Assembly (NCBI GenBank): GCA_017615375.1 | Contig: JAGAAH010000121.1 | Coordinates: 1 to 10,905 of the forward strand | Origin: Lachnospiraceae bacterium | GTDB taxonomy: Bacteria; Bacillota; Clostridia; Lachnospirales; Lachnospiraceae | Length of the DNA stretch: 10,905 nt | Direction of reading: 5' to 3' | Shown: positions 2,488 to 8,993 of the stretch, piece by piece | Position numbering within the stretch: position 1 is the first letter of the stretch | Layout: the number at the start of each line of letters is the position of its first letter | The notes under the pieces: generated by a model | Seen by the model: only the letters and a program-made list of their open reading frames with translations | The model's database searches: none | What the model was told of the DNA's origin: nothing | Made by a program: the position numbers and the translations under genes

Positions 2488-4305
2488 AAAGGCACAAGAA
2501 GAGGAATTTTCCTGTATATTTTCCTGATTCTGGCGGTTGTCGGAATCTGGTTATTCTATGGCAGGTTATCTGTTGTAGACAGCACTTACAATAAAAAGCA
2601 CCTTGTAGAAGATATTAATAACGGCAGGGTTGCGCGTATTATCTTGCAGCAGGAGCGTGAGGTTCCGACCGGTTTCGTTAAGATAACCCTTGTTGACGAT
2701 AAAGGTGAAAGCAAGAATATCGTTATGGCAACGTCTGATATTAACGAAACTGCTGCATTGCTCGACAGCCTTAATTTTAATAATTATATTCTGACGGAAG
2801 TGCCGGAAGAAAGCTTTCTTAAGGAACTTCTGCCATTACTTCTTATATTCGGTGCAATGTTTATCTTATTTATAATACTGATGAACAGACAGGCTGCAGG
2901 TGGCGGCGCACCGAGAAATGATTTTGGAAGAAGCAGGGCAAAGCTTCATGAGAAGAATGAAGTTAATGTTAATTTTGAATCGGTTGCCGGACTTAAGGAA
3001 GAAAAGGAAGAATTATTCGAGATAGTCGACTTTCTTAAAAATCCTCAGAAGTATACGGAGCTTGGCGCAAGAATTCCGAAAGGACTTATATTGGTGGGTC
3101 CTCCGGGAACAGGTAAGACACTTCTTGCCAAAGCTGTTGCGGGAGAAGCGGGAGTACCGTTCTTTTCAATATCGGGTTCCGACTTTGTTGAATTATACGT
3201 AGGTATCGGTGCGGCGCGTGTAAGAGATTTGTTTGCGGAAGCAAAGGCTAATGCACCTTGTATTATATTTATAGACGAGATTGATGCGGTGGCGCGTCAC
3301 AGAGGTTCCGGTCTTGGCGGTGGTCATGATGAGAGAGAGCAGACGTTAAACCAGCTTCTTGTTGAGATGGATGGTTTCGGTAATAACGAAGGAATAATCG
3401 TTATGGCGGCAACCAACAGAGTAGATATTTTAGACCCTGCAATCATGCGACCGGGAAGATTCGACAGAAAGGTATATGTAGGTCGTCCTGATGTAAAAGC
3501 AAGACGTGAGATACTCGATGTACACGTTAAGAATAAGCCACTCGGAGATGACGTCGATCTTGAGCGCGTAGCCAAGACTACGTCGGGATTTGCAGGTGCA
3601 GACCTTGAGAATCTTATGAATGAAGCTGCTATTTCCGCAGCAAAAGAAGGCCGTAAGTATATAGTTCAGGAAGATATTGATAAGAGCTTTGTTAAGGTTG
3701 GTATAGGAACAGAGAAGAAGAGCCGCGTGGTATCCGAGAAAGAACGTAAGATTACCGCATACCACGAAGCTGGACATGCGATGCTTTTCCATCTTCTTCC
3801 CGATGTCGGACCGGTACATACGGTATCCATTATTCCTACAGGTAATTCTGCGGCAGGCTATACAATGCCGCTCGATCATGATGATAACATGTTCTTAACG
3901 AAGAGCAAGATGCTTCAGGATATCATGGTAGATCTTGGCGGACGAATTGCCGAAGAGCTTATCTTCCATGATGTGACGACCGGAGCAAGTCAGGATCTTA
4001 AACAGGCAACCAAGCTTGCGAGAGCCATGATTATGAAATATGGTATGTCCGATAGAATCGGTCTTATAAGTCTCGACAATGAGGAAGAGGAAGTGTACAT
4101 TGCCAAGGAGATGGCACATCCGAGATCATATGGCGAGAATGTCGCAACGAAGATAGACGAAGAAGTTAAGGCTATAATCGACGAGTGCTATGACAAAGCA
4201 AAGGGAATCATTAACGAGCATATGGATGAACTTCATAAAGTATCGGAGATGCTTCTCGAAAAAGAGCGTATTACGCGCGAAGAGTTTGAATCGGTATTTA
4301 ATTAG
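2485..4305 (+). CDS. ftsH: ATP-dependent zinc metalloprotease FtsH
   Basis: FtsH is a hexameric membrane-anchored AAA+ protease that extracts and degrades misfolded membrane proteins and selected cytosolic regulators. The 606-residue protein shows, in order: a first transmembrane helix (about 7-25), an extracytoplasmic domain (about 27-113), a second transmembrane helix (about 114-133), a Gly-rich linker, then the AAA+ module with Walker A GPPGTGKT (205-212), Walker B IIFIDEID (260-267), pore loop YVG (238-240) and arginine fingers R322 and R325 in MRPGRFDR. The peptidase domain has the zinc site HEAGH (427-431, catalytic E428) and the third ligand D504 in GASQDLKQAT. The pore aromatic is Tyr where E. 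coli has Phe, as in some mitochondrial relatives. It is slightly short for the family because the acidic tail is small. It is the last gene of the tilS-hpt-ftsH unit; the first terminator after it is at 4481-4511. Confidence 0.97.
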   Translation: MKGTRRGIFLYIFLILAVVGIWLFYGRLSVVDSTYNKKHLVEDINNGRVARIILQQEREVPTGFVKITLVDDKGESKNIVMATSDINETAALLDSLNFNNYILTEVPEESFLKELLPLLLIFGAMFILFIILMNRQAAGGGAPRNDFGRSRAKLHEKNEVNVNFESVAGLKEEKEELFEIVDFLKNPQKYTELGARIPKGLILVGPPGTGKTLLAKAVAGEAGVPFFSISGSDFVELYVGIGAARVRDLFAEAKANAPCIIFIDEIDAVARHRGSGLGGGHDEREQTLNQLLVEMDGFGNNEGIIVMAATNRVDILDPAIMRPGRFDRKVYVGRPDVKARREILDVHVKNKPLGDDVDLERVAKTTSGFAGADLENLMNEAAISAAKEGRKYIVQEDIDKSFVKVGIGTEKKSRVVSEKERKITAYHEAGHAMLFHLLPDVGPVHTVSIIPTGNSAAGYTMPLDHDDNMFLTKSKMLQDIMVDLGGRIAEELIFHDVTTGASQDLKQATKLARAMIMKYGMSDRIGLISLDNEEEEVYIAKEMAHPRSYGENVATKIDEEVKAIIDECYDKAKGIINEHMDELHKVSEMLLEKERITREEFESVFN

Positions 4306-4380
4306 AGAATAAGTAAAAAGTATATGGCGGGTTGCGTTTTGTGCAAATCTACCAAAAACTTAAGGACGAAATTAGAAATT

Positions 4381-4417
4381 TTGGCAAACCTTGTTATTTG
4401 GCATATGCTATTATAAT
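4381..4417 (+). promoter_or_regulatory. Candidate promoter for the small RNA, with palindromic -10
   Basis: A perfect TATAAT lies at 4412-4417. The best -35 choices are imperfect: TTGTTA at 4391-4396 with a short 15-base spacer, or TTGGCA at 4381-4386 seventeen bases before a weaker TATGCT (4404-4409). The TATAAT lies inside a perfect 12-bp palindrome CTATTATAATAG (4408-4419) that abuts another perfect palindrome GCATATGC (4401-4408), so a bound regulator could occlude this promoter. Predicted transcription start is near 4424. Confidence 0.4.
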
Positions 4418-4423
4418 AGACGT

Positions 4424-4511
4424 AAACCCCCAATACATTATATAATTTTTGCTAACCCCATAGTAAAAATACCTTCTCCTAAAAGGCAACCAGCGACGGT
4501 TGTCTTTTTTT
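4424..4511 (+). ncRNA. Candidate small regulatory RNA with C-rich motifs
   Basis: Between the TATAAT at 4412-4417 and the intrinsic terminator at 4481-4511 lies a stretch of about 88 bases with no sensible reading frame. It carries CCCCC (4427-4431), ACCCCA (4455-4460) and ACCTTCTCCT (4471-4480), separated by A/T-rich sequence and followed directly by the terminator hairpin. Exposed C-rich segments able to pair with Shine-Dalgarno sequences are a known feature of Gram-positive small RNAs of the RsaE/RoxS type; I do not claim membership of that family. The alternative is that this is only the 3' untranslated tail of ftsH mRNA, or a leader with attenuation for the next gene. Confidence 0.35.
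4481..4511 (+). terminator. Rho-independent terminator
   Basis: AAAAGGCAACC (4481-4491) pairs with GGTTGTCTTTT (4498-4508) in an 11-bp stem with one G-U pair and a six-base loop (AGCGAC), followed by seven T in total (4505-4511). It is the best terminator in the window. It would end transcripts from ftsH and from the promoter region at 4381-4417, and it isolates the downstream sensor gene, which has its own promoter. Confidence 0.85.
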
Positions 4512-4535
4512 CGTATGTAAAAAGGTGAAATTACT

Positions 4536-4604
4536 ATGAATTCCATTGCCAGAGAGAAATCTACCACATATAATGATTTTAAAGTCAATCCGGTAACCTG
4601 TTAA
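4536..4604 (+). CDS. Possible 22-residue leader peptide or small protein
   Basis: An ATG at 4536 opens 22 codons (beginning MNSIAREKSTTY, ending NPVTC) and stops with TAA at 4602-4604, 24 bases before the sensor gene and in the same reading frame. The Shine-Dalgarno AAAGGTGA (4521-4528) is well placed at about eight bases. Against it, the ORF coincides with a strong promoter (4546-4574) whose transcript would start inside it, and a terminator lies just upstream, so only read-through RNA, or RNA started at about 4512-4520, could carry it. The peptide has no recognisable family. It may be chance. Confidence 0.22.
   Translation: MNSIAREKSTTYNDFKVNPVTC
4546..4574 (+). promoter_or_regulatory. Sigma-A-type promoter for the TetR-kinase gene
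   Basis: TTGCCA (4546-4551) and TATAAT (4569-4574) are separated by exactly 17 bases, a five-of-six -35 and a perfect -10. Predicted start is near 4581, giving a leader of about 48 bases before the TTG codon. It lies after the terminator at 4481-4511, as expected for an independently transcribed gene. Confidence 0.7.
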
Positions 4605-4615
4605 CTATGCATAGT
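4604..4615. promoter_or_regulatory. Perfect 12-bp palindrome before the TetR-kinase ribosome binding site
   Basis: ACTATGCATAGT is a perfect inverted repeat lying about 24 bases after the predicted transcription start and touching the Shine-Dalgarno AGAGGA (4616-4621). TetR-type regulators are known to bind inverted repeats near their own promoters, so an autoregulatory operator is the leading guess. In RNA it could only form a weak loopless stem, so a DNA site is more likely than a hairpin. Confidence 0.4.
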
Positions 4616-4628
4616 AGAGGACGATATA

Positions 4629-7600
4629 TTGGCGAAAGAAAAGAAGCTAACCAAGATACAACGCAGCGATAAAATAATGGATGCTGCCATATATGAGTTT
4701 GCAACGAGAGGATATGCAAATGCAAAGCTTTCGAATATTGCGGAGCGCGCAGGCGTGTCGTACGGATTGGTGTCTGCCAGATTCGGTTCGAAGGAGGAGC
4801 TTTTGTGTGCCTCTTTATTTGTTATTACGGATATTTTTGATAAGGCTGAGTATATGACGGGCGATGTATTTGACCGTCTTTCATGTGTTATAGATCGTAT
4901 AAGGGAATATGCGGCAAATTCAAGCATTGAATTCGATTATTGTTTTAATGTACTTACTGGCAAGGATATTCCGGAATGTGTAGATAAGATTCTGTGGGAT
5001 TATTTTACGACTGATACCGCGATTACACTTCTCGGAGATGCAATGCAGCAGGGAATAATTTCGAAAGACGACCCTTATTCGTTTATAAGAAATGTTATGG
5101 TCCTTGCATTACAGGTATTTGATAATGACAGAAGATTCGGTCACGATTTCAGGACAAATGAGGAAATCTTCAATATTATCATTATTAATAATAAATCAAG
5201 GTACAGAATAAATGAAGAGGGTTCAAATTTTGATGTTACCGATAAAAGGTTACAGATATACGAAGATTTCATCAAGCTTCTTAATAAGAGATTCATATCT
5301 GCACAGTATTATAACATAGATACCGATGAGCAGGAAGTTGTCAGGGTTAATGCCAAGATAGACGGAATTACCTATAAGAAAAACGGTTTCCGTGAAGGAT
5401 TCTCCAATTATATAGAGAATTATGTTGCAAAAGACGATACGAAGAGACTTCTTGATATGATTGACCCTAAATCACTTAAGAAAGCACTTAAGGAAAAGGA
5501 TACCATAAGTACAAGGTACACTCAGATTATCAATGGTAACGAACAATATATTATGGTACAGATTTCGCGAGGACTTGATGAGAGTCATGCAATTGCGATA
5601 TTTACCAATGTTACGGATAGCGTCCTTGAACAGGAAGCTTTGGAGAACAGATTACAGACTCAGGAAGATAAAAACGCGGAACTTCTACGTGACGAAGCTG
5701 CATACCAACGCGCAATTCTCGCCGAAGCTGATTCTTATTGGAAGATTAACCTTACTAAGAATCGAGTAATAGGAAAGGTTAATGAATCGGAAAACAATAG
5801 CCCGACAGATCTTAAGAAATACATAGAGAAGGCAATGTCCGATTATGCCGCAGGTAATAAAATATGGGCTGCAGAATTGGTTGATAGAGAATACCGTGCG
5901 GAATTCAGGAAGAAGATGTCGCCGGAGTATTTAATAGAACAATTCCATAAGGGCAACAGAATTCCTGAGATGATTGCCAAAGAGAAGCTTAATGGTATTG
6001 ACTGGATATATAGGCATTATGTTGCGTATCTGTCGGAAGATGAGAAGACCGGTGATATATATGCAATGATGGTTGCATATGATGTAACCGAGGAAGTCCT
6101 TGCCGAGCAGGAGAATGAAGCAAAAGAAAAGGGCATACACGGACTTATAGAGACTCTGTATCAGGTGGAAGATGTAGAGAAAGCTATAGAAAGAATGCTT
6201 GCTATAGTTTGCAATTATCATAGGGCCGACAGAGCATATGTATTTGAGTTCAATAAGGAAAGAACGGAAGCATTATATCGTTATGAATGGTGTAAGCGCG
6301 GAATTAAGTCTTCAAAGCCTAATATAGAGAAAATTCCGTTTGAATACTTATCAACCTGGTTCCTTATATTCGAAAATGAAGGAGAACTTAGGATTGATAA
6401 TATTCATAAGGCACTTGATAAGCGTACTGCATTATACAAGTCCTTATGTGCAGAGGGCGTCGATAGTGTACTTGCGGCACCTATAATCATGGAAGGTGTA
6501 ATTGTAGGATACATAGGCCTTGATAACCCGAAAAGTCGTATGGATGAAACCATTGTACTTAAGACTTCTGCAGCACTATCTTATAGTGAGATATTAAGAA
6601 GAAAGCAAAATGATGAGGAACACATCGTATCGGATCATATCTATCAGAGCTTTAAGTCAGTATATTACGTAGATTTTATTACGGATTACATAGCGGTCCA
6701 TACGGCAGATGAGAAGAAGAAAGAAGAGTTCTGCCGAAATAAGAGTTATACGGAGTTCATGAAGCGATACGGCCAGGAGTATATTCCTGAGAATAGTTGC
6801 GCAAGGTGCAAAGTTATGCTTGCTCCGGAATACATAATGGAGCAATTTAAGAATCGCGATATGGTGGTCGTGGATTATGTAAGCGAGAAGAATAAGAAGC
6901 GTAAGAATATAGCACTTAGATTTATTAAGGCAAACGATGCGGGAACCGCAGCGGTTATCTGTGAGATTGATAATACCGATGCGGTCATTCGTGAACGCGA
7001 AGTTGCAAATAGACTTGATGAGGCAAGAAAAGCGGCAGAAGCGGCAAACGAAGCTAAGTCGAGATTCTTATTCAATATGTCGCATGATATCAGAACGCCT
7101 ATGAACGCAATTATTGGATTTACCAATCTGGCGGAACAGAGCATAGATAATAAGGAACTCGTAATCGAGTATCTTGATAAAGTTCGAAATGCAAATTCTT
7201 ATCTTAAGACACTTGTAGATGACGTTCTTGATATGGCACGAATCGAAGCGGGACGATTCCAGATAGAGGATACGGTTTGTGATGTTAAGGCAACTACGGA
7301 AGAGATATGCAAGCTTATGATTGCAGATGCGAAAAAGAAGAATATTACCTTTACATATGAGGTAAGGCATCTTAAACATCCGAATGTCTGGGCGGATATA
7401 CTTCGAGTTAAGCAGATAGTTATTAATGTTATATCTAATGCCATCAAATATACATATGAAGGAGGACGTGTAAAGTATACGGTTACAGAGGAAGATATTG
7501 ACAGAGAAGGCTATACGAGATTTGTTCTTAAGGTAGTCGATAACGGAATCGGTATGAGTAAGGAATTCCTCGAACGCATATATAATCAGTTTGAACGCGC

Positions 7601-8201
7601 CAACAGTTCCACTGTCAGCGGAGTTCAGGGAACCGGACTTGGAATGGCAATTGTTAAGCGAATCGTAGATATGATGGGCGGCAACATACGTATAGACAGC
7701 GAAGAAGGTAAAGGAACCCGAGTCGCGATTACGCTTGATGCAAAGATTGCCGACATAACGCCGGAAGAATATGTAAAAGAAAAAGAACAGGAGACAAGTC
7801 CCGAATTCTTTGCAGGAAAGAAAGTCCTGCTTGTCGAAGACAATCATCTTAATATCGAGATTATGCAGCATATATTGAAGAAGTTTGAGATGAAAGTTAC
7901 GACTGTGCAAGACGGTACGGAAGCAGTTGAGGCAGTTAAGAAGGCAAGAGTGGGTGAATACGATCTGATTCTTATGGATATTCAGATGCCTGTTATGAAC
8001 GGATACGAGGCAACCAAGAAGATAAGAGCAATGAAAGATAAAGGTGCCCCAATCCCTATAATAGCGATGACGGCCAATGCATTTGAAGAAGATAAGAGAG
8101 CAGCACTCGATGCCGGAATGAACGGACATGTAGCAAAACCTATTAATGTCAAGGAGCTTGCAAAAACTATGCATAAAGCACTTGATGATAGGAAGGCGTA
8201 A
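4629..8201 (+). CDS. TetR-type DNA-binding domain fused to a PAS/GAF hybrid histidine kinase with receiver
   Basis: A predicted cytoplasmic sensor of 1190 residues in one unbroken frame. Domains in order: TetR helix-turn-helix (about 10-60, with IAERAGVS at 37-44 and FGSKEEL at 52-58); a TetR ligand/dimerisation-like helical region (about 60-190); PAS-like module (about 205-335, ending TNVTD); short coiled coil; PAS-like module (about 365-490, ending YDVTEE); GAF (about 503-655); PAS-like module (about 668-788, with CARC at 724-727); helix; HisKA with H819 in NMSHDIRTPMN; HATPase with N937, DNGIG (971-975) and GTGLG (1001-1005); receiver (about 1064-1185) with E1070, D1071, phosphoacceptor D1117, T1148 and K1170. 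All catalytic residues are present. No membrane helix or signal peptide is seen. The TTG start has AGAGGA (4616-4621) and no other in-frame start follows the TAA at 4602. The recognition region reads GLVSARF where many TetR proteins have a Tyr after the Leu. Base and codon use resemble the neighbours, so recent transfer is not evident. Target genes and signal are unknown. Confidence 0.88.
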   Translation: MAKEKKLTKIQRSDKIMDAAIYEFATRGYANAKLSNIAERAGVSYGLVSARFGSKEELLCASLFVITDIFDKAEYMTGDVFDRLSCVIDRIREYAANSSIEFDYCFNVLTGKDIPECVDKILWDYFTTDTAITLLGDAMQQGIISKDDPYSFIRNVMVLALQVFDNDRRFGHDFRTNEEIFNIIIINNKSRYRINEEGSNFDVTDKRLQIYEDFIKLLNKRFISAQYYNIDTDEQEVVRVNAKIDGITYKKNGFREGFSNYIENYVAKDDTKRLLDMIDPKSLKKALKEKDTISTRYTQIINGNEQYIMVQISRGLDESHAIAIFTNVTDSVLEQEALENRLQTQEDKNAELLRDEAAYQRAILAEADSYWKINLTKNRVIGKVNESENNSPTDLKKYIEKAMSDYAAGNKIWAAELVDREYRAEFRKKMSPEYLIEQFHKGNRIPEMIAKEKLNGIDWIYRHYVAYLSEDEKTGDIYAMMVAYDVTEEVLAEQENEAKEKGIHGLIETLYQVEDVEKAIERMLAIVCNYHRADRAYVFEFNKERTEALYRYEWCKRGIKSSKPNIEKIPFEYLSTWFLIFENEGELRIDNIHKALDKRTALYKSLCAEGVDSVLAAPIIMEGVIVGYIGLDNPKSRMDETIVLKTSAALSYSEILRRKQNDEEHIVSDHIYQSFKSVYYVDFITDYIAVHTADEKKKEEFCRNKSYTEFMKRYGQEYIPENSCARCKVMLAPEYIMEQFKNRDMVVVDYVSEKNKKRKNIALRFIKANDAGTAAVICEIDNTDAVIREREVANRLDEARKAAEAANEAKSRFLFNMSHDIRTPMNAIIGFTNLAEQSIDNKELVIEYLDKVRNANSYLKTLVDDVLDMARIEAGRFQIEDTVCDVKATTEEICKLMIADAKKKNITFTYEVRHLKHPNVWADILRVKQIVINVISNAIKYTYEGGRVKYTVTEEDIDREGYTRFVLKVVDNGIGMSKEFLERIYNQFERANSSTVSGVQGTGLGMAIVKRIVDMMGGNIRIDSEEGKGTRVAITLDAKIADITPEEYVKEKEQETSPEFFAGKKVLLVEDNHLNIEIMQHILKKFEMKVTTVQDGTEAVEAVKKARVGEYDLILMDIQMPVMNGYEATKKIRAMKDKGAPIPIIAMTANAFEEDKRAALDAGMNGHVAKPINVKELAKTMHKALDDRKA

Positions 8202-8209
8202 GACTATAC

Positions 8210-8239
8210 TTAACATATGGAACTTTTACCATATATAAA
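8210..8239 (+). promoter_or_regulatory. Candidate promoter of the deoD-deoB-cdd-pdp operon
   Basis: TTAACA (8210-8215, five of six to consensus) and TATAAA (8234-8239, five of six) are 18 bases apart; an overlapping TATATA (8232-8237) gives a 16-base spacer. A second perfect TATAAT at 8253-8258 lacks a good -35 and would start RNA on the ribosome binding site, so it is less likely. There is no terminator between the preceding stop codon (8199-8201) and this promoter, so read-through from the kinase gene is also possible. Confidence 0.5.
8215..8234. promoter_or_regulatory. Inverted repeat in the deoD promoter, candidate operator
   Basis: ATATGG (8215-8220) and CCATAT (8229-8234) form a perfect 6-bp inverted repeat with an eight-base spacer. 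It fills the gap between the proposed -35 and -10, where a bound repressor would block RNA polymerase. The size and symmetry suit a dimeric helix-turn-helix protein. The 6-bp arms are short and the region is A/T-rich, so chance cannot be excluded. Confidence 0.35.
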
Positions 8240-8276
8240 GAAACAAGTAAATTATAATAGATAAGGAGATATAATT

Positions 8277-8993
8277 ATGGCAACACCACATAATCAGGCA
8301 AACGTAGGAGATTTTGCAAAGACGGTTCTTATGCCGGGAGACCCATTAAGAGCTAAGTTTATTGTTGATACATTTTTGGAGGACGTAAAGCTTGTTAATG
8401 AAGTAAGAAACATGCTCGGATATACGGGTAAGTACAAGGGAGTTCCTGTATCCGTTATGGCGAGCGGTATGGGAATGCCGAGTATCGGTATCTATTCTTA
8501 TGAGCTTTATAAGTTCTATGATGTTGATAACATTATAAGAATCGGCTCATCCGGTTCATATACCGCCGACCTTGACGTATTGGACGTAGTACTCGCCAAA
8601 AGCGCATACAGCGATTCTACATTTGCCAAGATGCAGAGCGGTGAGACTTCGCAAACATTGTTACCGTCCGCAAGTCTTAACAAGGCAATATTGGATAAGG
8701 CAAAAGAACTTAACATTCCTTGCAAGGAAGCTGTAGTTCATTCTGCAGACGTATTCTATGTAGAAGATTCATTGGAGACATTTGAAGATATAAGAAAGAG
8801 AACAGGTTCCGATTGCGTTGAAATGGAATCTTTCGCGCTTTTCCACAATGCTAACGTACTTCATAAGAATGCAGCATGTCTTCTTACAATTTCGGATTCA
8901 TTTGTAAGCAAGAAGGAAATCTCTGCAGATCAGAGACAGATTGCATTTAAGGATATGATGAGACTTGCACTCGAGACAGCAATTAATTTATAA
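8277..8993 (+). CDS. deoD: Purine-nucleoside phosphorylase, DeoD type
   Basis: DeoD splits purine ribo- and deoxyribonucleosides with phosphate to the free base and (deoxy)ribose-1-phosphate. The 238-residue length is that of the hexameric trimer-of-dimers family. Residues corresponding to the E. coli active site are visible: H5, G21 in MPGDPLRAK, R25, R44, R88 in RIGSSGS, E182 and E184 in VEMES, D207 in TISDS and R220. The conserved Asp (D207) is the residue that lets this class accept 6-aminopurines such as adenosine as well as 6-oxopurines. AAGGAG at 8263-8268 lies eight bases before the ATG. It is the first gene of a four-gene nucleoside operon and is followed by deoB after ten bases. Its product sugar phosphate feeds DeoB, and released hypoxanthine could be reused by Hpt encoded upstream. 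Confidence 0.95.
   Translation: MATPHNQANVGDFAKTVLMPGDPLRAKFIVDTFLEDVKLVNEVRNMLGYTGKYKGVPVSVMASGMGMPSIGIYSYELYKFYDVDNIIRIGSSGSYTADLDVLDVVLAKSAYSDSTFAKMQSGETSQTLLPSASLNKAILDKAKELNIPCKEAVVHSADVFYVEDSLETFEDIRKRTGSDCVEMESFALFHNANVLHKNAACLLTISDSFVSKKEISADQRQIAFKDMMRLALETAINL

What the first reader, a model, noticed from the sequence alone, without database searches (positions are those of the whole stretch)
4629..8201. TetR regulator fused to a complete hybrid histidine kinase: a one-protein sense, phosphorylate and bind-DNA system
The sequence shows one open frame with a TetR helix-turn-helix and TetR-like helical core at the N-terminus, three PAS-like modules, a GAF domain, an intact HisKA/HATPase core (H819, N937, DNGIG, GTGLG) and an intact receiver (D1117). 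Known hybrid two-component systems of Bacteroidetes carry an AraC-type output at the C-terminus and span the membrane; here the DNA-binding part is TetR-type, N-terminal, and no membrane helix exists. Inference: ligand binding to the TetR core, or PAS/GAF signals acting through phosphorylation of D1117, may change dimerisation and DNA binding. Both TetR and HisKA act as dimers, so the fusion is structurally sensible. I do not recognise a described system with this layout.
Basis: partly seen in the sequence, partly recalled or inferred. Interest (0 to 1): 0.85.

Follow-up and report, generated by a model that had tools for sequence, protein, structure and literature searches.

The report
TetR repressor fused to histidine kinase
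A Lachnospiraceae bacterium and its near relatives encode one chain, without membrane helix, that joins a whole TetR-type DNA-binding module to a complete hybrid histidine kinase, and it is predicted to bind a conserved palindrome at its own promoter and so likely lets sensing, phosphorylation and gene control happen in a single protein.

Summary
ORF 4629-8201 (1190 aa) is one unbroken chain: TetR_N (46.5 bits, cut-off 24) with a full predicted TetR fold, three PAS-like modules, a GAF-like module, HisKA/HATPase (H819, N937, DNGIG, GTGLG) and a receiver (D1117). No DNA-binding domain follows the receiver and no membrane helix is seen. The fusion is no assembly accident: it sits at the same place (ftsH-[fusion]-deoD-deoB-cdd-pdp) in 4 of 7 genomes of the genus (45-80% identity to the window's), and 12 of 121 protein clusters examined, its own included, share the layout. 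New evidence: its promoter carries a 14-bp palindrome, TGATTTTAAARTCA, from the last base of the -10 onward, 13/14 invariant in the four genomes (spacer 3/17, leader 3/35). The exact pattern is absent from the 3 congeners without the fusion. In the most distant of the four the HTH is 64% identical, the TetR core 23%. Autorepression through this site is the best-supported reading. That kinase state or D1117 phosphorylation changes DNA binding is inferred and untested. It differs from Bacteroides HTCS (AraC output, membrane sensor). I call it a new variant of a known kind. A side find may be a new Lachnospiraceae small-RNA family.

The parts
4629..8201 (+). TetR-hybrid histidine kinase fusion gene, 1190 aa, TTG start
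   Evidence: open frame; orthologues of 1190, 1190 and 1174 aa in G002, G003, G004
4674..4805 (+). TetR_N helix-turn-helix, residues 16-59
   Evidence: Pfam PF00440 46.5 bits, cut-off 24; also found in a whole-genome search
4812..5198 (+). TetR helical core, residues about 62-190
5292..5609 (+). PAS-like module 1, residues about 222-327
   Evidence: secondary structure of the model only; no Pfam PAS match
5733..6083 (+). PAS-like module 2, residues about 369-485
   Evidence: secondary structure of the model only
6171..6551 (+). GAF-like module, residues about 515-641
   Evidence: Pfam GAF below cut-off here (16.3/22.4 bits) and in orthologue P0006 (21.0/22.4); GAF-like order of elements in the model
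6657..6971 (+). PAS-like module 3, residues about 677-781
   Evidence: secondary structure of the model only
7053..7253 (+). HisKA dimerisation/phosphoacceptor domain, residues 809-875, H819 in MSHDIRTP
7395..7745 (+). HATPase_c catalytic domain, residues 923-1039 (N937, DNGIG 971, GTGLG 1001)
   Evidence: Pfam 96.5 bits; motif positions
7824..8168 (+). Receiver domain, residues 1066-1180, phosphoacceptor D1117
4546..4574 (+). Promoter of the fusion gene: TTGCCA, 17-base spacer, TATAAT
   Evidence: consensus scan, 11 of 12, best of 6 promoter-like sites in 4250-4700 (shuffle mean 1.9); -35 4 of 6 and -10 5 of 6 positions invariant in 4 genomes
4574..4587 (+). Candidate operator TGATTTTAAAGTCA (6 of 7 palindromic pairs), beginning at the last base of the -10 and reaching over the expected start of transcription
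   Evidence: 13 of 14 positions invariant in 4 genomes; exact pattern TGATTTTAAARTCA in 4 of 7 genus genomes, those with the fusion
4604..4615 (+). Second small palindrome ACTATGCATAGT just before the ribosome-binding site
   Evidence: G003 has TTAATGCGCATTAA at about the same place, no such palindrome was listed for G002 or G004, so weak
4616..4621 (+). Likely ribosome-binding site AGAGGA, 7 bases before the TTG
   Evidence: read from the sequence
8277..8993 (+). deoD-type nucleoside phosphorylase, first gene downstream; deoB, cdd, pdp follow (names recalled from the sequences, not from a call)
   Evidence: 75-base gap, no terminator found; gap 29 bases in G004; order kept in G002, G003, G004

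Best explanation
The gene encodes one chain without membrane helix that carries a TetR-type DNA-binding module at its N-terminus and a complete hybrid histidine kinase behind it, and it is predicted to repress its own promoter, and likely the nucleoside-salvage genes behind it, by binding the palindrome TGATTTTAAARTCA at the promoter. SHOWN: domain content, intact catalytic residues, conserved locus, fewer amino-acid-changing than silent differences in every module, and a conserved palindrome at the promoter. INFERRED: the dimeric TetR module binds this palindrome. INFERRED: signals read in the cytoplasm by the PAS/GAF-like modules change the shared dimer axis and the His819-to-Asp1117 phosphorylation state. 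INFERRED: that state changes the hold of the TetR part on DNA, so that kinase output and transcription are coupled in one molecule. Transcription of the fusion gene together with deoD-deoB-cdd-pdp is also inferred.
For: Pfam and motifs; whole TetR fold, HK853-like kinase and CheY-like receiver folds. Orthologues at the same locus in 4 of 7 genus genomes, the window's included. Palindrome 13/14 invariant against 3/17 in the promoter spacer, 3/35 after it and 7/26 before the -35; the one change, in G004, makes the palindrome perfect. The exact pattern occurs in 4 of 4 genomes with the fusion and 0 of 3 without; read backwards it occurs in 0 of 7; in the four genomes one site lies elsewhere (G004:C28:1166). 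Towards G004 the HTH keeps 64% identity, HisKA 72%, receiver 63%, TetR core 23%, as expected if the HTH still reads the same site. The deo genes follow in the same direction with no terminator found.
Against: No experiment. The palindrome is short and A+T-rich; with one mismatch allowed all 7 genomes have matches, so no regulon could be read from it. It overlaps the promoter and could serve another regulator or the promoter itself. One of the 3 genomes without the fusion (G001) is only 77% complete. A weak promoter-like match at 8182-8210 (9 of 12) could drive deoD on its own. No call tests coupling of phosphorylation to DNA binding; the TetR part and the receiver lie about 880 residues apart, and pTM of the full model is only 0.34. 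The genomes have Hpt proteins, so phosphoryl groups may leave the protein.
Confidence: 0.5

Rival explanations
1. A conventional soluble hybrid kinase that signals in trans by phosphorelay (receiver to a separate Hpt protein to other response regulators); the TetR part only sets its own gene dosage by autorepression, uncoupled from kinase state.
For: The receiver ends the chain and has no output domain. Hpt matches in 7 of 7 genus genomes, each with at least one small frame of 116-132 aa over the cut-off. Nine non-fused kinases lie among the 12 fused ones in the tree, so the kinase can do without TetR.
Against: Does not explain why the two parts stay fused down to 45% protein identity and in 12 clusters; nothing here shows which Hpt, if any, is the partner.
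Confidence: 0.33
2. The TetR part has lost DNA binding and serves as a small-ligand sensor and dimerisation unit for the kinase; the palindrome belongs to another factor.
For: The TetR core fold is complete and diverges at least as fast as the sensor modules (23% identity against 35%, 38%, 36% and 53% for PAS-like 1, PAS-like 2, GAF-like and PAS-like 3 towards G004), as ligand-sensing parts do.
Against: The HTH is one of the best-kept parts (89, 85 and 64% towards G002, G003, G004), and the palindrome is kept exactly where the fusion is kept.
Confidence: 0.12
3. Artefact: a separate tetR gene and a kinase gene joined by a sequencing or assembly error.
For: The window's genome is a fragmented, 62% complete assembly.
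Against: The same fusion is whole in G002, G003 and G004 and in other clusters.
Confidence: 0.01

Closest known systems
Hybrid two-component systems (HTCS) of Bacteroides (PMC11253607, abstract and passages seen)
   Same: Histidine kinase, receiver and DNA-binding domain in one chain; the kinase dimer must control a tethered DNA-binding domain.
TetR/AcrR family one-component regulators (RamR, RutR and others)
   Same: TetR_N HTH and whole TetR fold; palindrome at own promoter, as often in the family (recalled).
   Different: Members are usually about 200 aa and stand alone (recalled; the two other TetR_N matches of this genome lie in frames of 209 and 184 aa); here about 1000 further residues of sensor, kinase and receiver follow.
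Hybrid histidine kinases with PAS/GAF modules (for example P0070, P0078)
   Same: Same HisKA/HATPase/receiver core and PAS/GAF sensors; among the nearest non-fused kinases in the tree.
   Different: Pfam lists no DNA-binding domain in P0070 or P0078.

Membership tests
TetR/AcrR family regulator | TetR_N helix-turn-helix over the curated cut-off | tested here: met
   46.5 bits against 24
TetR/AcrR family regulator | Helical TetR ligand-binding/dimerisation core behind the HTH | tested here: met
TetR/AcrR family regulator | Binds a palindromic operator, often at its own promoter | tested here: inconclusive
   conserved palindrome at own promoter; binding itself not testable here
TetR/AcrR family regulator | Ligand-controlled DNA release | not testable with these tools
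   no ligand known
Hybrid histidine kinase | HisKA with phosphoacceptor His, HATPase_c with N and G boxes | tested here: met
Hybrid histidine kinase | Receiver with phosphoacceptor Asp in the same chain | tested here: met
   Response_reg 97.6 bits, D1117
Hybrid histidine kinase | Autophosphorylation and His-to-Asp transfer | not testable with these tools
   needs a biochemical assay
Bacteroides-type HTCS | AraC-type DNA-binding domain behind the receiver | tested here: not met
   receiver match ends at 1180 of 1190; the one DNA-binding family listed up to E 10 that fits is TetR_N at 16-59
Bacteroides-type HTCS | Membrane-spanning sensor | tested here: not met
   no membrane helix: top hydropathy 1.86 lies in GAF-like strands; FtsH control 2.98
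Bacteroides-type HTCS | Kinase, receiver and DNA-binding domain in one chain | tested here: met

The most novel reading that the evidence does not exclude
A DNA-seated histidine kinase: a soluble one-chain phosphorelay that sits on its own operator as a TetR-type repressor and, on a cytoplasmic signal, uses its own His-to-Asp phosphorylation to leave or grip DNA, switching itself and the nucleoside-salvage operon behind it; the first described member of a TetR-hybrid-kinase family parallel to, and not derived from, the Bacteroides HTCS.
Probability: 0.3. Interest if true: 0.75.

Novelty: new variant of a known kind. Interest (0 to 1): 0.5.

Why it matters
Textbook bacterial signalling separates the one-component layout (sensor plus DNA-binding domain) from the two-component layout (kinase plus regulator). 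A family that holds a whole TetR repressor and a whole hybrid kinase in one soluble chain, with a matching operator at its own promoter, would be a second way to merge the two and a ready system for asking how a kinase dimer can control a tethered DNA-binding domain from the other end of the chain. One-chain repressor-kinases would also be practical parts for building sensors.

Tried and rejected
Tried without gain. (1) The genome-contig scan with the fused-protein alignment was steered by kinase motifs and kept 80 of 593 kinase relatives. A TetR profile built from alignment A3, run on the open frames of at least 400 aa in the 166 loci then held (those 80 included), found TetR only in loci of G000, G002, G003 and G004. 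(2) Wider census with A3, at most 8 candidates scored per genome, so a fusion could be missed: family draw, 109 of 397 genomes with a TetR match at E 1e-12, only the window's own in a frame over 330 aa; order draw, 9 of 392 at E 1e-18, only the own fused; phylum draw, 16 of 398 at E 1e-18, only the own fused. The long frames there, in G728, G775, G857, G901 and G982, were read by eye and with the TetR profile, not with Pfam: TetR with other or out-of-gene sequence, no kinase seen (one search read one strand only and was repeated on both). The fusion is rare, and the organisms behind P0014, P0015, P0031, P0059, P0067 and P0121 remain unknown. (3) A site search with one mismatch gave matches in 7 of 7 genomes and was dropped as a regulon search. 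(4) The other exact site, in G004, lies in a 24-bp perfect palindrome before an ABC-F-type ATPase gene (name recalled). Relatives at 48% identity occur in G001 and G006, which lack the fusion and the exact site, so it does not support a shared regulon. (5) Palindromes before deoD were found in G000 and G002 only, and differ; dropped as operators. (6) RamR and RutR among the fold matches do not indicate a ligand. (7) Searches with the TetR part alone found few fused proteins: 5 and 3. (8) pdb_via on the whole model tested kinase and receiver mainly; no PAS or GAF match was listed there. (9) In one search the promoter hexamers were counted one base off; one search repeats the count in the right frame, and its numbers are used.
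Full report
OBSERVATION. One frame, 4629-8201 (+), TTG start, codes for 1190 residues. Pfam finds TetR_N (16-59, 46.5 bits, cut-off 24), HisKA (809-875), HATPase_c (923-1039) and Response_reg (1066-1180) over their cut-offs; GAF (515-637) is below its cut-off and no PAS family is listed. The structure model supports three PAS-like modules and one GAF-like module between the TetR part and the kinase; these four are structural readings, not family matches over a cut-off. NCBIfam lists kinase relatives, each below its cut-off among the 25 shown of 166.

IT IS A REAL, INHERITED FUSION. The protein search (7998 candidates scored, 7996 matches, the best 120 listed) shows 11 of 120 clusters with TetR_N, HisKA, HATPase_c and Response_reg in one chain (P0001 is the window's own); a search with P0015 added P0121: 12 of 121. 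I scanned 9 of these 12 with Pfam (window, P0005, P0006, P0014, P0015, P0031, P0059, P0067, P0121) and each had TetR_N over the cut-off; for P0002-P0004 I rely on the precomputed labels. In the genus, 4 of 7 genomes carry it: G000, G002 (80% identity), G003 (64%), G004 (45%), each between ftsH and deoD-deoB-cdd-pdp; gene names for the neighbours are recalled from their sequences. In G003 one contig holds the whole gene and the deo side, another ends in its first 127 codons and holds the ftsH side; the shared stretch is 97.6% identical over 454 columns, so this is one locus seen in two strains or, less likely, two copies. In G001 (77% complete), G005 and G006 the fusion was not found, and around their deoD no ftsH match was found within the stretches fetched. 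Among 397 family, 392 order and 398 phylum genomes drawn (overlapping draws, at most 8 candidates scored each), only the window's own genome showed the fusion; G002-G004 were not among the matches of those draws.

EVOLUTION. A quick tree of the kinase-receiver part (80 of 121 rows: the 12 fused and the first 68 of 109 others) puts the 12 fused proteins in one starred set of 21 rows together with 9 non-fused kinases; the label needs 3 changes, starred branches force at least 2 (shuffled mean 11.5; 0 of 500 shuffles as low). Long branches meet in this tree, and near-copies favour clustering, so one origin with losses and more than one origin both remain open. P0007, one of the 9, begins inside a domain and is named partial, so it may be a cut fused protein. 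The TetR part also has stand-alone relatives: the best outside the genus in those draws is in G195 (118 bits, 198-aa frame), beside a sensor kinase and a regulator gene (read by eye).

SELECTION. Nonsynonymous differences per site are below synonymous ones in every module and each of three comparisons. dN/dS for the whole gene is 0.08 (G002), 0.11 (G003), 0.16 (G004), for the HTH 0.13, 0.25, 0.17; for GAF-like and PAS-like 3 (and some others towards G004) silent sites were saturated and no ratio could be given. Towards G004 identity is HTH 64%, TetR core 23%, PAS-like 35%, 38% and 53%, GAF-like 36%, HisKA 72%, catalytic domain 55%, receiver 63%. So the DNA-reading part and the phosphotransfer parts are kept best, and the ligand- and signal-reading parts drift.

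A LIKELY OPERATOR. Upstream of the TTG lies a promoter (TTGCCA-17-TATAAT, 4546-4574, 11 of 12 consensus matches; the best of 6 promoter-like sites in 4250-4700, shuffle mean 1.9), and from its last base on TGATTTTAAAGTCA (4574-4587). Aligned on this site, 13 of 14 positions are invariant in the four genomes, against 3 of 17 in the promoter spacer, 7 of 26 before the -35 and 3 of 35 after the site. The one difference, A for G in G004, makes the palindrome perfect (7 of 7 pairs). Searched exactly as TGATTTTAAARTCA in 7 genus genomes, it is present in the 4 with the fusion and absent in the 3 without; the backward control is 0 of 7; the sites are the fusion promoter in each of the 4 (twice in G003, on the two contigs) and one further site in G004. 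With one mismatch, 7 of 7 genomes have sites, so the evidence is for autoregulation, not for a regulon.

MECHANISM. A palindrome over the -10/+1 region, read by a dimeric HTH, fits repression of the gene's own promoter. Downstream, deoD starts 75 bases after the stop (29 in G004) with no terminator found in 8150-8350, so the nucleoside-salvage genes are plausibly in the same transcript; a weak promoter-like match at 8182-8210 is the counter-sign. How the kinase state reaches the HTH is inferred. In Bacteroides HTCS, tethering a DNA-binding domain to a kinase dimer calls for suppression, provided there by the receiver next to it (PMC11253607, abstract and passages). Here the receiver is at the other end of the chain, so control through the shared dimer axis, or by folding back, would be needed. 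The main rival is that phosphoryl groups leave through Hpt proteins, with matches in 7 of 7 genomes, and that TetR only sets the protein's own level.

KNOWN OR NEW. Searches of open-access full text for TetR with histidine kinase, hybrid, fusion, domain and one-component terms listed no paper that by title or start of abstract describes such a fusion; only the top rows of some searches were listed (for example 20 of 40, 15 of 59), and most subscription papers are not held. The passages shown of PMC3018481, PMC10663231 and PMC3532121 did not mention one. It meets the sequence and fold tests of both the TetR family and hybrid kinases and fails two defining features of Bacteroides-type HTCS. I therefore file it as a new variant of a known kind (one-chain hybrid systems).

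SIDE FIND. The 109 bases 4404-4512, between the end of ftsH and the fusion promoter, look like a small-RNA gene with its own -10 and terminator. One blastn query finds it in 75 of 144 related genomes at E 0.001, up to 5 listed copies in a genome (at most 6 candidates scored each). Of 99 listed places, 20 were aligned: they share an almost invariant middle with C-rich stretches and ACCTTCTCC, for which no pairing is predicted, and a terminator stem with changes on both sides in 2 of 5 predicted pairs. In Rfam, six matches were listed up to E 10, each far below its gathering score. One literature search with general terms brought nothing that fits by title or start of abstract. This may be a new Lachnospiraceae small-RNA family and deserves its own study.

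Noticed in passing
window 4404-4512 (+); L199-L217: Candidate small RNA: own -10, nearly invariant C-rich middle (ACCCCCAATACATTATATA...ACCTTCTCC, the latter resembling an anti-Shine-Dalgarno stretch), terminator hairpin with compensatory changes; in 75 of 144 related genomes, several copies in some, no Rfam family over its gathering score.
   Followed up: partly
G004:C28:1161-1184 (L178 1161-1184): A 24-bp perfect palindrome CAGATTGATTTTAAAATCAATCTG holding the operator-like core, just before an ABC-F-type ATPase gene; relatives of the gene in G001 and G006 lack the exact pattern.
   Followed up: partly
window 4653-4811: Silent sites of the HTH-coding stretch are less diverged (pS 0.28-0.32) than the whole gene (pS 0.65-0.72) against G002 and G003; gene conversion or an overlapping constraint at the 5' end would explain it. 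Only 53 codons; not so against G004 (0.66 against 0.74).
   Followed up: no
L176 (G195:C14) 3360-7431: Stand-alone TetR regulator most similar to the fused TetR parts among the genomes drawn (118 bits), directly before a sensor kinase and an HTH-bearing response regulator gene (read by eye): perhaps what an unfused relative of the pairing looks like.
   Followed up: partly
window 7068-8216 (-): A 382-codon open frame on the strand opposite the kinase and receiver; no evidence that it is a gene.
   Followed up: no
G003 C27 end and C21 start (L036, L035): Two contigs meet inside the fusion gene with a 454-column overlap at 97.6% identity, suggesting strain mixture or, less likely, two copies.
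   Followed up: partly
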